DNA of 64,000 nucleotides from a virus. Below the pieces are notes generated by a model. That model ran no database searches, was not told the origin of the DNA, and worked only from the letters and a program-made list of their open reading frames with translations. Shown piece by piece: positions 1,314 to 58,389 of the stretch. The translations under genes were made by a program, and so were the position numbers. Position 1 is the stretch's first letter; each line of letters opens with the position of its first letter. Location: positions 1-64,000 of IMG/VR virus record IMGVR_UViG_3300012199_000001. One strand, written 5' to 3'.

Positions 1314-1707
1314 TTCGGCGAGAAAACCACGAAGTCTTCAGCTTCGTGGTTGAATCGCCATCTGTATCCTTGTTTGCGAGAGCAAGGATACAGACAGTGA
1401 TCCAAAAAACTCCGCTTGCGCGGGTGGTGCGTATCTCCATCCTGTTACCAGATGGAGAATCCGACTTCACCTCGACACAGTTAAAGAGGCTTGTTAAACC
1501 TGAAGCACAGGGCTTTACCCAATGACCCAACTTAACCTCAGATGACAGATGCAAGAGCCTGGTGCGTCAGCTCAAGGTGTCCTGACTTCTCGAACGTAGC
1601 CTCTGTTTCTAGAGACTGAGTCTGGTGAACCTGGGCTTCTAAAGAAAACAAGCAGAAGTCACCCTCTCTTTAGAAGCCGCTAAGTCTTTAGCTTAGCGGT
1701 GATTCAC
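1314..1707. mobile_element. hairpin-rich segment, candidate non-autonomous IS200/IS605-like remnant
   Basis: About 390 bp without a credible gene. Both ends carry stem-loops with the same loop core: CCACGAAG-tcttcag-CTTCGTGG near 1327-1349 and CCGCTAAG-tctttag-CTTAGCGG near 1677-1699. Between them are further perfect stems: an 11-bp pair around 1371-1392, an 8-bp pair around 1434-1457 and a 12-bp pair (GGCTTCTAAAGA/TCTTTAGAAGCC) around 1633-1677. Matching subterminal hairpins and a right end reading GTGATTCAC resemble IS200/IS605 ends. No transposase or TnpB is present, so this may be a MITE-like remnant or an omega-RNA-like structured RNA. Confidence 0.45.
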
Positions 1708-28015: not shown

Positions 28016-28096
28016 GGTAGTGACGCCAACGGTGGTAAACTGTCTTGAAAACAGTGGGGTATAACAGCCTAGCGGGTTCGACTCCTGTCACTACCG
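28016..28096 (+). tRNA. tRNA-Ser (anticodon TGA)
   Basis: Acceptor arms GGTAGTG/CACTACC pair fully; discriminator is G. The anticodon arm ACTGT-CTTGAAA-ACAGT exposes TGA (codon UCA). The T arm is GCGGG-TTCGACT-CCTGT, and a long variable arm fits a serine tRNA. The D arm is short (GCC...GGT with six loop bases), so function may be reduced. CCA is not encoded. Confidence 0.8.
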
Positions 28097-28104
28097 CTTC
28101 ATCT

Positions 28105-28188
28105 GGTAGGCATGCAGAGCGGCTTATGCAGCAGACTGCTAATCTGTAAAGGATAACACCTTGGTTGGTTCGACTCCAACGCCTACCG
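28105..28188 (+). tRNA. tRNA-Ser (anticodon GCT)
   Basis: Acceptor arms GGTAGGC/GCCTACC, D arm GCA...TGC, anticodon arm GCAGA-CTGCTAA-TCTGT (anticodon GCT, codons AGC/AGU), variable stem AAGG/CCTT and T arm GTTGG-TTCGACT-CCAAC are all complete. Discriminator G fits serine. It lies eight bases after the first tRNA and probably shares its transcript. Confidence 0.92.
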
Positions 28189-28247
28189 TTTCCACTTCTA
28201 CATCCTCTAAACAGAAGAGATAAACAAGCGCAAAATAGTCCATAAAC

Positions 28248-28276: not shown

Positions 28277-28358
28277 AGAGGTAGAGATTATTGTCGGTCT
28301 GGAGGGTGTTGATAGCGCCCCCCAAACCTAAATCGCAGCCTGATTGGAGGCCATGATT

Positions 28359-29225
28359 ATGTTTGAATTCTACCATAACGAGCGATCCCCTGCGTCCAAA
28401 CTTTGCGCTAAATGCAAAGCGACAAAGCCTCTCGATGAGTATTCCCAACGAAAAGACGGCAAACATGAAGCACGTTGTAAGGAGTGCATACGAGAAGCTG
28501 ACAGAGAACGGAACCATAAACGCCGTCCGCGAAAGACACCCATTCTTCCAAAGTCCACCAAAGAGGGATATAAGATATGCAACACATGCTTGATCGAAAA
28601 ATCCCACAATGAGTTTTCCCCTGATTCTGCTCAGAAGGATGGCTATACTGGACGTTGCAAGGAATGTAGGGGCAATCGTTATCAATCGCTGCCAGAAGAA
28701 GAAAAAGAACGTATTCGCAGGCAGGATGTAGAAAGCCGCAGGCCACGAAAAGAACTGATTAATGCTCGTGATCGTCTGCGCCATAATACTGATGAACACA
28801 ATGCAAAGCGAAGAGAGCAGATGGCGCGGAAAAAGGCTACTGATGATAATTTTCAAGAAGCCGTGCGTCAGGCTCAAACCGAGTGGAGAAAGAATAATCC
28901 TCTGTATACTCGCGAATCTAATCGTCGTCACAAGATTAGGCAAAAAACAGCGAGGTCTGGTGGACGTATAAGCTATAAGCGCATTCTTGAGCGAGATGGC
29001 TACTTTTGCTATATCTGTGAGAAGGATATAGATTCGACTATTAAATCTAGCGATCCTGCTGGCCTTGTCTTCGATCACAAAATACCTCTTCACCCAAGAA
29101 AGGGTGAGCCTAAAGGGGAGCATACGCTTGACAATATTCATCCCGCACATAAATTGTGCAATGAAAGAAAGTTGAACAGGCAATTCGATAACCTACCAGC
29201 ATGGGATCGCAGAGGGGTTGATTGA
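28359..29225 (+). CDS. free-standing HNH endonuclease with tandem zinc ribbons
   Basis: The ATG at 28359 lies eight bases after GGAGG. Two CxxC...CxxC ribbons come first (CAKCKATKPLDEYSQRKDG..CKEC and CNTCLIEKSHNEFSP..CKEC), then a basic helical linker, then the HNH core: CYICEKDI, LVFDHKIPLHP, TLDNIHPAHKLCNERK. The His in FDHKIP is the likely general base. It is transcribed against the late operon and ends about 60 bp from a group I intron, as expected of a homing endonuclease. Confidence 0.8.
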   Translation: MFEFYHNERSPASKLCAKCKATKPLDEYSQRKDGKHEARCKECIREADRERNHKRRPRKTPILPKSTKEGYKICNTCLIEKSHNEFSPDSAQKDGYTGRCKECRGNRYQSLPEEEKERIRRQDVESRRPRKELINARDRLRHNTDEHNAKRREQMARKKATDDNFQEAVRQAQTEWRKNNPLYTRESNRRHKIRQKTARSGGRISYKRILERDGYFCYICEKDIDSTIKSSDPAGLVFDHKIPLHPRKGEPKGEHTLDNIHPAHKLCNERKLNRQFDNLPAWDRRGVD

Positions 29226-29287
29226 ATTTCCCCTTTGCGACTCATGCATGTTATAACCGTCAAACCCATTGATACTGGAAACCTAGT

Positions 29288-29504
29288 CATGCTTGTTGCT
29301 CACCTATTGCTAGGCGGGGTCTGTGATTTCTCCAGACCTCCCTGGTTTCTTTTTACGCTATAGCCAGGGATCGGAACATATCTTCGCTTTCGCGCCTGCG
29401 TGTGTTCTCTACGGACTCCGCGCCTTTCGGGTTGGTTGCCTCGGTATTGTCCTTGCGTTAGGAGTTTCACCGATATAGCAGGTTCTTCGAGAGAGCTTGT
29501 TAAG
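29288..29504 (-). ncRNA. group I intron, copy 2
   Basis: On the minus strand the core elements are in order: P4 TATCGGT with ATACCGA, P5 TCCT-aacgca-AGGA, P7 GAACA (in GTAGAGAACAC) with TGTTC (in AAGATATGTTCC), P8 CGC-GAAA-GCG, P9 CCCTGG/CCAGGG, then GTCTG/CAGAC and CCTA-GCAA-TAGG. P1 pairs GAGAGT with GCTCTC and places the U.G at 29505, so the intron begins at 29504. The 3' end (G at 29288) is by analogy with copy 1. The 5' exon ends four bases after a stop codon. Confidence 0.75.
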
Positions 29505-29508
29505 ACTC

Positions 29509-29543
29509 TCAAGCGGCAATCAGTTTACCGGCAGTAATGTACC
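29509..29543 (-). CDS. predicted exon 2 of virion protein
   Basis: Removing the upstream intron (29544-29761) joins ATG T to GG TAC ATT and adds WYITAGKLIAA before a TGA at 29511-29509. This is the longest of the three frames in this interval and reads smoothly on from IKCIAPVM. The splice phase depends on the predicted U.G at 29762 and the final intron G at 29544. Confidence 0.5.
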
Positions 29544-29761
29544 CATTTTGTTACTCGCTACTACTAGCGGGGCAGATTGTTTCCACCTGCCTCTCTGGTT
29601 TCTTTGCTAGGTTATCGCCAGAGTTCGGACTATGACATCGCTTTCGCGTCTCGCGTTTAGTCTCTACGGTGTCCTCCCCTATTCAGGCTTGGTTCCCTCG
29701 GCGTTGTCTTCCTCAAGAGTTTCACCGATACAGCGAGATTTGCAAATTATGCAGCTTTACT
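29544..29761 (-). ncRNA. group I intron, copy 1
   Basis: The 218-nt element has P4 TATCGGT with ACGCCGA, P5 TCTT-gagg-AAGA, P7 GACTA (GTAGAGACTAA) with TAGTC (GTCATAGTCC), P8 CGC-GAAA-GCG, P9 CTCTGG/CCAGAG, GCAGGT/ATCTGC and CGCTA-gtag-TAGCG. P1 is ATGT^AG with CTGCAT, placing the splice-site U.G at 29762. Every stem that differs from copy 2 changes on both sides. It has no internal open frame. It should self-splice with a guanosine cofactor. Confidence 0.85.
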
Positions 29762-30509
29762 ACATAACTGGGGCAATACATTTAATACCCGTCATTCCAG
29801 GCCCCGTGTACCAGGCCATGACAGTATACCAAAAGCCCGCTGTTACGGCTTTTGGTATCGCCACACTCTGTATATATCCGGTTGCGGCCTGCAATTGTTG
29901 CCAGGTTGCCATCCAGGAAGCGGCAGTTGTGTTTGCGGCAGCGGCAGTACCCGTTGTAACTGCAAGGGTCCCGGCTGCATTGGCTGCTGGCGTCTCCTGA
30001 GTGCCTGCTGCATTCACCCCAGACCCGTAGGCATTGGCTTTAATGTAGCTTGTAACAGGGGCTGTTCCGGTATCAGGGTTTGCGCCATTGACGAACGAGG
30101 TGCCATCACCACCTGCACCTGCACTTGGCTGAGTACCAGGAGAGGCGGCAGGCAGCGTGTTATCCTTCCAAGCTGAGAGGATATTGGCTGCGGCAAATGT
30201 GCCGGTTGCGTCCCAGTTTATACGCCATTGCATGTAATGCGCCGATGTGCCGTCATATGCAGCAACCTTCACGCCGCCTGAAGCGTCAGCGCCGAAGTAG
30301 CCCCACATCTCGGGAATCGTTGATGTGCTTCCTGGACGCAGGAAAGTGGGCCATGAGGCCGACGCAATACTTGCGCCTCCCGCTCCTGTACCACACAGGC
30401 GAAGCTCGTAATTTGCAGTCGCGAACAACATGTCTGTCCATGTCGGTGTTGCGTCAGGTGTACTTGATGCCGTATTTACTTGCGACTTGATGAGTGTGAA
30501 ATCGCTGAT
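29762..30509 (-). CDS. virion protein, exon 1 (intron-interrupted)
   Basis: The frame encodes a Gly/Ala/Thr-rich protein (KISDFTLIKSQVNTASSTPD ... FWYTVMAWYTGPGMTGIK). It runs into TAG exactly two bases inside the predicted group I intron, as intron-interrupted phage genes do. The start is unresolved: AGAAAGAGG lies eight bases before an ATC codon at 30509, and the first in-frame ATG is at 30431. Insertion of the HNH gene upstream may have removed the original start. It is probably a minor tail protein. Confidence 0.6.
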
Positions 30510-30536
30510 TTTGGGTACCTCTTTCTCTGTGTGAAC

Positions 30537-56963: not shown

Positions 56964-58389
56964 GCACCACCTCCTCGGCACGTTCTAGGAGCGTGGCAGC
57001 CTGTCCCGTTTCCTTCTCCCAGCGAGAGAGCACCACATTGATATAGTCTGCACTCAGTTCACACCCTATAACAGATCTATCACCCAATCTCTCAGCGGCA
57101 ATCACGCTGATACCAGAACCAAGAAATGGATCGAAGATCCAATCCCCCTCATGCCCAAATTCGGTAAAACAATAGGAAGCCAGAGCGCAGGGTTTTTGGC
57201 TCGGGTGTACTCTCTTCTGTCCATGCTCACTTGCCTTGAGCATTCCATTCCACATATGCCGAAAAATGCGTACAGCCCGATCTGCACTACACCATGCTAA
57301 TTCAGCATCAGCGAAATTGCCTGTATTCTCCTTATCCCAGACAATCCAGCACTTTGAAGGAGGGAGAGTATTCGCATAGTAGTTTGCACCCCACCAGACG
57401 TGCACCGCACCTGGAAACAATTCTAGGCAGATTTGAGAGGAGACAATAGCCGTCTCTGTGGTGTCATCACCAATAATCGGGGCATACTTGCCAACGTCCA
57501 CCACGTTCGCGGCTCCGTCGGAGCCGCGAACGGACCTGCTTCCAAAGGGCTTGGCTCCATTGGGGGAGCCAAGCCCTTTGGAAGCAGGTCCGTTCTTTTT
57601 CTCCTGCCATTCTTCAAGATAGGATTTGCCGGTCTTTCTGATGTGGGAGGCGGTGCCTCCCACATCACCGCGTGTCCGGTTTTTTACGCCGCCGAAAGGA
57701 ATATCATAGGCTTCACCGCCACCAACGGATACGTTGGTGGCGACAATAGAAATGCCGTAGGGAGGATCTGCAAAGACGAGCGAGATATGCTTCTTGCCAA
57801 TAAGTTTTTGCACAGCATCGATATTACAACTATTCATACAGGCAATGATGTGCCTGCCTAGTTGCCATACATCGCCAACCTGAACACGTGTCTGTTCCTC
57901 ATCAACTTCTTGCTCAAATTCGTCTTCCTCATCACCACCACCTCCGTACCCGGCAGGTTCATCACCGAGTGCCTCCAGCATCTGCCGCAGCGCCTCATCA
58001 TCAGTGCCGAGTGTTGCTAGGTCATACCCTGCATCCTGCTGCCCTTGCAAAAGTTGCACGAGGATGGACTCATCATCTACAGCCTCATTGGAGAGAAGGT
58101 TGTCCGCTGCAAGTATGCCATCGATATCCTCTTGCAGAGTGCTCTCGGGTAGGATATCGGCCCTCACGCGCGTTACACCGCGTTCGCGCATAGCCTGGAC
58201 AATACCATGACCAGCCACTTGTATATATTGTCCACCCGGACGCTGCCACACTACCACTGATCGGTACTGTGAGAAGCGCTCATGAGACGCCTTGAGCTTC
58301 TTGATTTGTGGATCAGGATGCTCCCGATAATTCCTGGGATGAGGCTTAATCGCCTCAATAGGAATAACACTGTTGACGATCTCAGTCAA
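56956..58389 (-). CDS. ParB-domain DNA methyltransferase with palindrome-rich insert
   Basis: Residues 1-110 form a ParB/Srx-like domain (AIKPHPRNYREHPDPQIKKL, VAGHGIVQAMRERGV). Then comes a beta-class amino-methyltransferase: LVFADPPYGISIV (catalytic motif IV, DPPY) and, near the C-terminus, DWIFDPFLGSGISVIAAERL (SAM-binding motif I). It probably methylates adenine N6 or cytosine N4 in DNA. Between the motifs, about 80 residues (GGVKNRTRGDVGGTASHIRK, NGPASKGLGSPNGAKPFG) are encoded by a series of perfect inverted repeats. Confidence 0.85.
   Translation of the reverse strand: MTEIVNSVIPIEAIKPHPRNYREHPDPQIKKLKASHERFSQYRSVVVWQRPGGQYIQVAGHGIVQAMRERGVTRVRADILPESTLQEDIDGILAADNLLSNEAVDDESILVQLLQGQQDAGYDLATLGTDDEALRQMLEALGDEPAGYGGGGDEEDEFEQEVDEEQTRVQVGDVWQLGRHIIACMNSCNIDAVQKLIGKKHISLVFADPPYGISIVATNVSVGGGEAYDIPFGGVKNRTRGDVGGTASHIRKTGKSYLEEWQEKKNGPASKGLGSPNGAKPFGSRSVRGSDGAANVVDVGKYAPIIGDDTTETAIVSSQICLELFPGAVHVWWGANYYANTLPPSKCWIVWDKENTGNFADAELAWCSADRAVRIFRHMWNGMLKASEHGQKRVHPSQKPCALASYCFTEFGHEGDWIFDPFLGSGISVIAAERLGDRSVIGCELSADYINVVLSRWEKETGQAATLLERAEEVVHA
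57504..57595. repeat. nested perfect palindromes inside the methyltransferase gene
   Basis: Arms 57504-57516 and 57520-57532 form a perfect 13-bp inverted repeat with a 3-base loop. Arms 57528-57558 and 57565-57595 form a perfect 31-bp inverted repeat with loop ATTGGG. Both are in frame and encode Gly/Ser/Lys-rich sequence. Such structures resemble in-frame palindromic elements. Confidence 0.9.
57640..57742. repeat. two further perfect inverted repeats in the same gene
   Basis: GATGTGGGAGGC-ggt-GCCTCCCACATC (57640-57666, 12-bp arms) and CGCCACCAACG-gata-CGTTGGTGGCG (57717-57742, 11-bp arms) lie within 150 bp of the larger palindromes and are also in frame. Confidence 0.9.

What the first reader, a model, noticed from the sequence alone, without database searches (positions are those of the whole stretch)
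29288..29761. Two tandem group I introns in a phage late operon, supported by compensatory base changes
On the minus strand two elements of about 217 and 218 nt follow each other with only a 39-nt spacer. Both show P4, P5, P7, P8 and P9 in order. Stems that differ between copies change on both sides: P7 GAACA/TGTTC versus GACTA/TAGTC; P5 TCCT/AGGA versus TCTT/AAGA; P9 CCCTGG/CCAGGG versus CTCTGG/CCAGAG; and a further P9-type stem GTCTG/CAGAC versus GCAGGT/ATCTGC. This is strong evidence for RNA structure. Tandem, separately spliced introns at one gene end are rare.
Basis: partly seen in the sequence, partly recalled or inferred. Interest (0 to 1): 0.87.

Follow-up and report, generated by a model that had tools for sequence, protein, structure and literature searches.

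The report
Paired phage self-splicing introns, 17-nt exon
Near the end of a phage structural (tail-region) gene lie two small self-splicing RNA introns separated by an exon of only 17 bases; cutting both out restores the protein ending seen in intron-free relatives, a solid but not unprecedented case of tandem group I introns.

Summary
A covariance model built only from other phages finds exactly two hits in the 64-kb window (E about 2e-16 and 4e-16). Across 30 distinct family members the P3, P4, P5, P6 and P7 helices are 96.7% paired with 102 two-sided changes, against 24 in shuffles. The map is exon 1 ending GGGU at 29787, intron 1 at 29786-29544 (243 nt), a 17-nt exon at 29543-29527, intron 2 at 29526-29288 (239 nt), and exon 3 at 29287-29260. 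Splicing both out gives ...GPGMTG-GTLLPV-LGFQYQWV*, matching intron-less relatives (MTAGTLLPVEGVQYTWV*, MTGGLLMPVLYFQYTWV*); this map ranks first of 44,201 candidate splicings. The closest proven relative is the mycobacteriophage BAKA tail-gene intron (spliced in vivo, PMC3706429), which the same model finds. Tandem group I introns with tiny exons are known (Twort 23 nt, Coxiella 34 nt; PMC10136302). So this is a new member of a known kind, with a shorter exon than either. Splicing itself was not tested.

The parts
29787..30512 (-). exon 1 of a structural (tail-region) gene; ends ..GGA ATG ACG GGU (5' splice site after U29787)
   Evidence: about 61-65% identical to L001, L002, L003; U.G pair with the internal guide sequence
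29544..29786 (-). group I intron 1 (243 nt, no ORF); P1 GGGU/GCCC, P2 UUAUGUAG/CUGCAUAA, P3 UCUCGC/GCGAGA, P7 GACUA/UAGUC, ends ..AAAAUG
   Evidence: model R1 83.3 bits, E 2e-16; Rfam RF00028 29.1 bits; MFE fold shows P1, P2, P3, P4, P5, P8, P9
29760..29762 (-). in-frame TAG inside intron 1 (P2), previously read as the end of the gene
   Evidence: read-through of exon 1 into intron 1 gives ..MTGIKCIAPVM*, which departs from the relatives after MTG
29527..29543 (-). exon 2, 17 nt (GGTACATTACTGCCGGT), encodes GTLLPV together with the first base of exon 3
   Evidence: relatives read GTLLPV (L001) and GLLMPV (L002) at this place; best of 44,201 splicings
29288..29526 (-). group I intron 2 (239 nt, no ORF); P1 CGGU/GCCG, P2 GAGAG/CUCUC, P3 CCUGC/GCAGG, P7 GAACA/UGUUC, ends ..GCAUG
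   Evidence: model R1 81.8 bits, E 4.1e-16; fold z-score -3.1
29260..29287 (-). exon 3, 28 nt, encodes LGFQYQWV and the true stop TGA
   Evidence: relatives end VEGVQYTWV* and VLYFQYTWV*
28344..29225 (+). free-standing HNH endonuclease gene, antisense, ending 34 bases from the true stop; candidate trans-acting homing enzyme (inference)
   Evidence: Pfam HNH, PHROG endonuclease VII/HNH; absent between these genes in L001 and L002
30646..31410 (+). second free-standing HNH endonuclease gene, antisense, upstream of the interrupted gene
   Evidence: Pfam HNH E 3e-12; 62% identical gene at the same place in L003

Best explanation
Two ORF-less group I introns of one phage subfamily interrupt the end of a structural (tail-region) gene at two GGU sites 17 nt apart. 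In the transcript each folds into its own ribozyme. P1 pairs the exon end (GGGU or CGGU) with an internal guide (GCCC or GCCG) with U.G at the cut. Guanosine bound at P7 attacks the 5' site, and the freed exon then attacks after the terminal G. Both introns are removed and the 17-nt exon is kept, because only that gives the reading frame and C-terminus of the relatives. Shown by sequence: the core helices and their covariation, splice-site features, restored reading frame and intron-less alleles. Inferred: guanosine-dependent self-splicing, order of events and efficiency, and spread by homing, possibly with help in trans from the neighbouring free-standing HNH enzymes.
For: Model R1, built without the window, gives only these two hits in 64 kb and in the whole 67.6-kb record. 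On 30 distinct sequences, 96.7% of helix cells pair, 16 of 25 pairs change on both sides, and there are 102 two-sided cells against 24.4 +/- 4.5 in shuffles and at most 21 in slid versions. Columns 165/213 of P7 switch from G-C to A-U beside a bulged base, as expected of a group I guanosine site. Each exon ends in U and each intron in G. P1 shows U.G in both. P10 of intron 1 has 8 consecutive pairs, GGUACAUU with AAUGUAUU. The spliced product aligns to L001 and L002 with no gap from MTG on, and ranks first of 44,201 splicings (score 270; best one-intron 204; unspliced 97). The BAKA intron, spliced in vivo (PMC3706429), is a family member (61.4 bits) and shares the GGU| site and the AGUAACAA..G end.
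Against: No RNA data. Rfam's gathering cut-off is not reached. P10 of intron 2 is poor. The splice map was refined with the relatives' protein ends in view, so one search is not fully independent of the P1 choice. The gene has ATC where relatives have the ATG start, so its expression is uncertain.
Confidence: 0.93

Rival explanations
1. Exon skipping or a composite intron: the 5' site of intron 1 is joined to the 3' site of intron 2 and the 17-nt piece is discarded, as observed for part of the Twort orf142 transcripts.
For: Two similar introns flank a tiny exon; exon skipping is documented in such genes (PMC10136302, PMC11878797).
Against: 17 is not a multiple of three: skipping shifts the frame and gives an unrelated C-terminus running into the neighbouring region. 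The best one-intron join allowed in the scan scores 204 against 270. P3, P7, P9.1 and P9.2 pair poorly across the two introns, which disfavours one chimeric ribozyme.
Confidence: 0.03
2. Degenerate, non-splicing intron remnants; the gene ends at the TAG in intron 1 and the shortened protein (..MTGIKCIAPVM) is functional.
For: The unspliced protein is only 6 residues shorter than the spliced one; the ATG start of relatives is ATC here; no RNA evidence.
Against: All core helices are intact in both, with pairing kept through two-sided changes. Exons 2 and 3 still encode the relatives' C-terminus in the right frame, which would be expected to decay if never spliced.
Confidence: 0.03
3. The elements are structured RNAs of another kind (riboswitch, attenuator) in the 3' UTR.
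For: They seem to lie just after a stop codon if the TAG is taken as the gene end.
Against: Group I core with P3/P7 pseudoknot, and precise removal restores the gene.
Confidence: 0.01

Closest known systems
Mycobacteriophage BAKA/Optimus minor tail gene group I intron (265 nt, RT-PCR proven; PMC3706429)
   Same: Same RNA subfamily (R1 61.4 bits), ORF-less, in a tail gene, 5' site GGU|, 3' end ..GGAGUAACAA..G, similar Rfam score of 28.6; free-standing HNH genes elsewhere in those genomes.
   Different: Single intron; no micro-exon.
Phage Twort orf142 (tail tube gene) introns 2 and 3, as described in PMC10136302 and PMC11878797
   Same: Two similar group I introns in a tail gene around a very short exon.
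   Different: Exon of 23 nt against 17; subgroup IA2; partial exon skipping shown. The original 1999 paper was not held.
Coxiella burnetii 23S rRNA introns (as described in PMC10136302)
   Same: Two group I introns around a short exon (34 nt).
   Different: rRNA host gene and introns of different subgroups.
T7-like phage DNA polymerase intron (K1F gp5)
   Same: Weakly found by model R1 (26.6 bits) and by Rfam.
   Different: Carries an HNH gene inside the intron; different host gene.

Membership tests
Group I intron | Conserved core P3-P4-P5-P6-P7 with P3/P7 pseudoknot | tested here: met
Group I intron | P7 with bulged base and guanosine-site pair | tested here: met
   Columns 165/213 covary G-C to A-U beside an unpaired column 166
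Group I intron | P1 with U.G at the 5' splice site | tested here: met
   GGGU/GCCC and CGGU/GCCG
Group I intron | Terminal G of the intron | tested here: met
   ..AAAAUG| and ..GCAUG|
Group I intron | P10 pairing of guide with the 3' exon | tested here: inconclusive
   8 pairs in intron 1; intron 2 interrupted by mismatches; P10 is not essential in all introns
Group I intron | Removal restores the host gene as in intron-less relatives | tested here: met
Group I intron | Rfam RF00028 curated score cut-off (a database threshold, not a biochemical feature) | tested here: not met
   29.1 bits for element 1 and no hit for element 2 against 50; a proven relative scores 28.6 and also fails
Group I intron | Guanosine-dependent self-splicing | not testable with these tools
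   Needs RNA
Exon-skipping tandem group I pair (Twort type) | Skipped product | not testable with these tools
   Needs RNA; skipping would break the frame
Collaborative homing with a free-standing HNH enzyme | HNH enzyme cuts the intron insertion site | not testable with these tools
   HNH genes flank the gene, but the distant relatives of one of them, L062-L065, carry no intron of this family

The most novel reading that the evidence does not exclude
The pair acts as a switch: the ratio of inclusion to skipping of the 17-nt exon decides between the normal C-terminus and a frame-shifted, longer one, giving two forms of the protein from one gene.
Probability: 0.05. Interest if true: 0.75.

Novelty: new member of a known kind. 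Interest (0 to 1): 0.42.

Why it matters
It extends a little-described subfamily of small ORF-less phage group I introns, largely missed by Rfam's cut-off, and shows two of them side by side with a 17-nt exon, shorter than the 23- and 34-nt exons cited for phage and bacterial pairs. It is a natural test of how two ribozymes share a tiny exon, since P10 of the first and P1 of the second together take up most of it. It also warns annotators: the gene would be called 6 residues too short, with a wrong last 8 residues.

Tried and rejected
My first map (note) took UUAUGU/GCAUAA and GAGAGU/GCUCUC as P1 and joined exon 1 directly to FQYQWV. It was rejected when relatives showed these hairpins to be P2, with P1 lying 20-25 nt further 5', and it scored lower (195 against 270). 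BLASTN against phage records gave only a short weak match to T7-like polymerase introns. Further scans for the host protein found only the same three phage contigs and no bacterial genome, so the host stays unknown. HNH relatives in IMG/VR had no intron of this family nearby. Inter-intron exon lengths in L014 and L046 could not be fixed from sequence alone. The tree joins the two window introns, but with support of only 0.67, so origin by local duplication is possible and not shown.

Full report
What was checked. The finding names two tandem group I introns at 29288-29761 on the minus strand. I read the region, ran Rfam, looked for relatives of the host protein and of the RNA, built a covariance model from the relatives alone, and tested splice maps by script.

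The RNAs are group I introns. A search of IMG/VR for the P4/P5 signature of the two elements returned 58 contigs. Seventeen ORF-free cores from these, none from the window, made model R1. In the window R1 finds 29744-29625 (83.3 bits, E 2e-16) and 29489-29371 (81.8 bits, E 4e-16) and nothing else; the remaining 3.6 kb of the record adds none. On 31 aligned members (30 distinct), with P3, P4, P5, the base of P6 and the pseudoknotted P7 written out, 96.7% of cells pair, 16 of 25 pairs change on both sides, and every control is far below. The alignment was fitted to a structure containing P3, P4, P5 and P6, so those counts lean towards it; P7 was not in the model and still pairs in 96% of cells. 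The minimum-energy folds of the two introns show P1, P2, P4, P5, P8 and the P9 stems unaided.

The exon map. In relatives such as L013 the 5' splice site is CCGGU|AAACAUCAUUGCCGG, with P2 as the next hairpin. By the same anatomy intron 1 starts after GACGGGU (29787) with guide GCCC, and intron 2 after GCCGGU (29527) with guide GCCG. The ends AAAAUG and GCAUG match the family's AGUAACAA..G end. The intron-less relatives L001 and L002 end ..MTAGTLLPVEGVQYTWV* and ..MTGGLLMPVLYFQYTWV*. The spliced window gene reads ..MTG-GTLLPV-LGFQYQWV*, without a gap from MTG on. Among 44,201 combinations of U-ending exons and G-ending introns this map scores best. A caution: I knew the relatives' ends when I settled the map, so this is confirmation rather than blind prediction.

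The middle exon. It is 17 nt. Its first 8 nt can pair with the guide region of intron 1 (P10) and its last 4-5 nt form P1 of intron 2, so most of it has a job in splicing. Because 17 is not a multiple of three, both introns must be removed and the exon kept to reach the relatives' C-terminus. Retaining intron 1 ends the protein at ..IKCIAPVM, retaining only intron 2 gives ..GTLLPVN, and skipping gives an unrelated tail. P3, P7, P9.1 and P9.2 cross-pair poorly between the two introns, which argues against the single large ribozyme discussed for exon skipping in PMC10136302.

Relation to what is known. The BAKA tail-gene intron, shown to splice by RT-PCR (PMC3706429), is a member of this subfamily (R1 61.4 bits), with the same GGU| site and GGAGUAACAA end, and also falls below Rfam's cut-off (28.6 bits). 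Tandem group I introns around 23-nt (Twort) and 34-nt (Coxiella) exons are documented (PMC10136302), a small exon lies between two introns in phage phiNIT1 (PMC11878797), and in fungal mitochondria exons of 3 bp are reported (PMC12308204). Close pairs of this same family occur in other IMG/VR phages (L023, L006, L021, L014, L046), with an exon of about 55 nt in L023 by my reading. So the arrangement is a new member of a known kind. The 17-nt exon is the shortest I found for phages or bacteria in the papers I could read, which is not a complete survey.

Mobility. Neither intron has an ORF of its own. Two free-standing HNH genes lie antisense, one ending 34 bases from the true stop and one just upstream of the gene. 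L001 and L002 lack the downstream HNH gene and the introns, and the next gene follows at once. L003 has the upstream HNH gene (62% identical), but its contig ends before the intron site. Collaborative homing (described in PMC3984707) is therefore a reasonable inference and nothing more.

Noticed in passing
window 30507-30509 (-): At the start codon of the interrupted gene the window has ATC (AAAATCAGCGATTTC) where L001, L002 and L003 have ATG; a sequencing error, a weak non-standard start or a lost start.
   Followed up: partly
window 29826-29858: A perfect 12-bp inverted repeat with a 9-nt loop inside exon 1, about 40 nt before the first 5' splice site.
   Followed up: no
window 28016-28189 (+): A tRNA-Ser(GCT) gene (28104-28189) and a second, degenerate tRNA-like hit (28016-28095), placed with the HNH gene in an insertion absent from L001 and L002.
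   Followed up: no
window 1460-1707 (-): A HEARO RNA (RF02033, 97.3 bits); whether a partner nuclease gene is present and intact was not checked.
   Followed up: no
window 57534-57589: A near-perfect hairpin of about 55 bases on both strands (it draws microRNA model hits below their cut-offs).
   Followed up: no
L046:2991-3797: Several introns of this family in one stretch, the last with a LAGLIDADG-like ORF; an even denser cluster than the window's.
   Followed up: partly
L014:2745-3179: Two family introns with a gap of only 132 nt between cores, so the exon between them may also be very short; the splice sites could not be fixed.
   Followed up: partly
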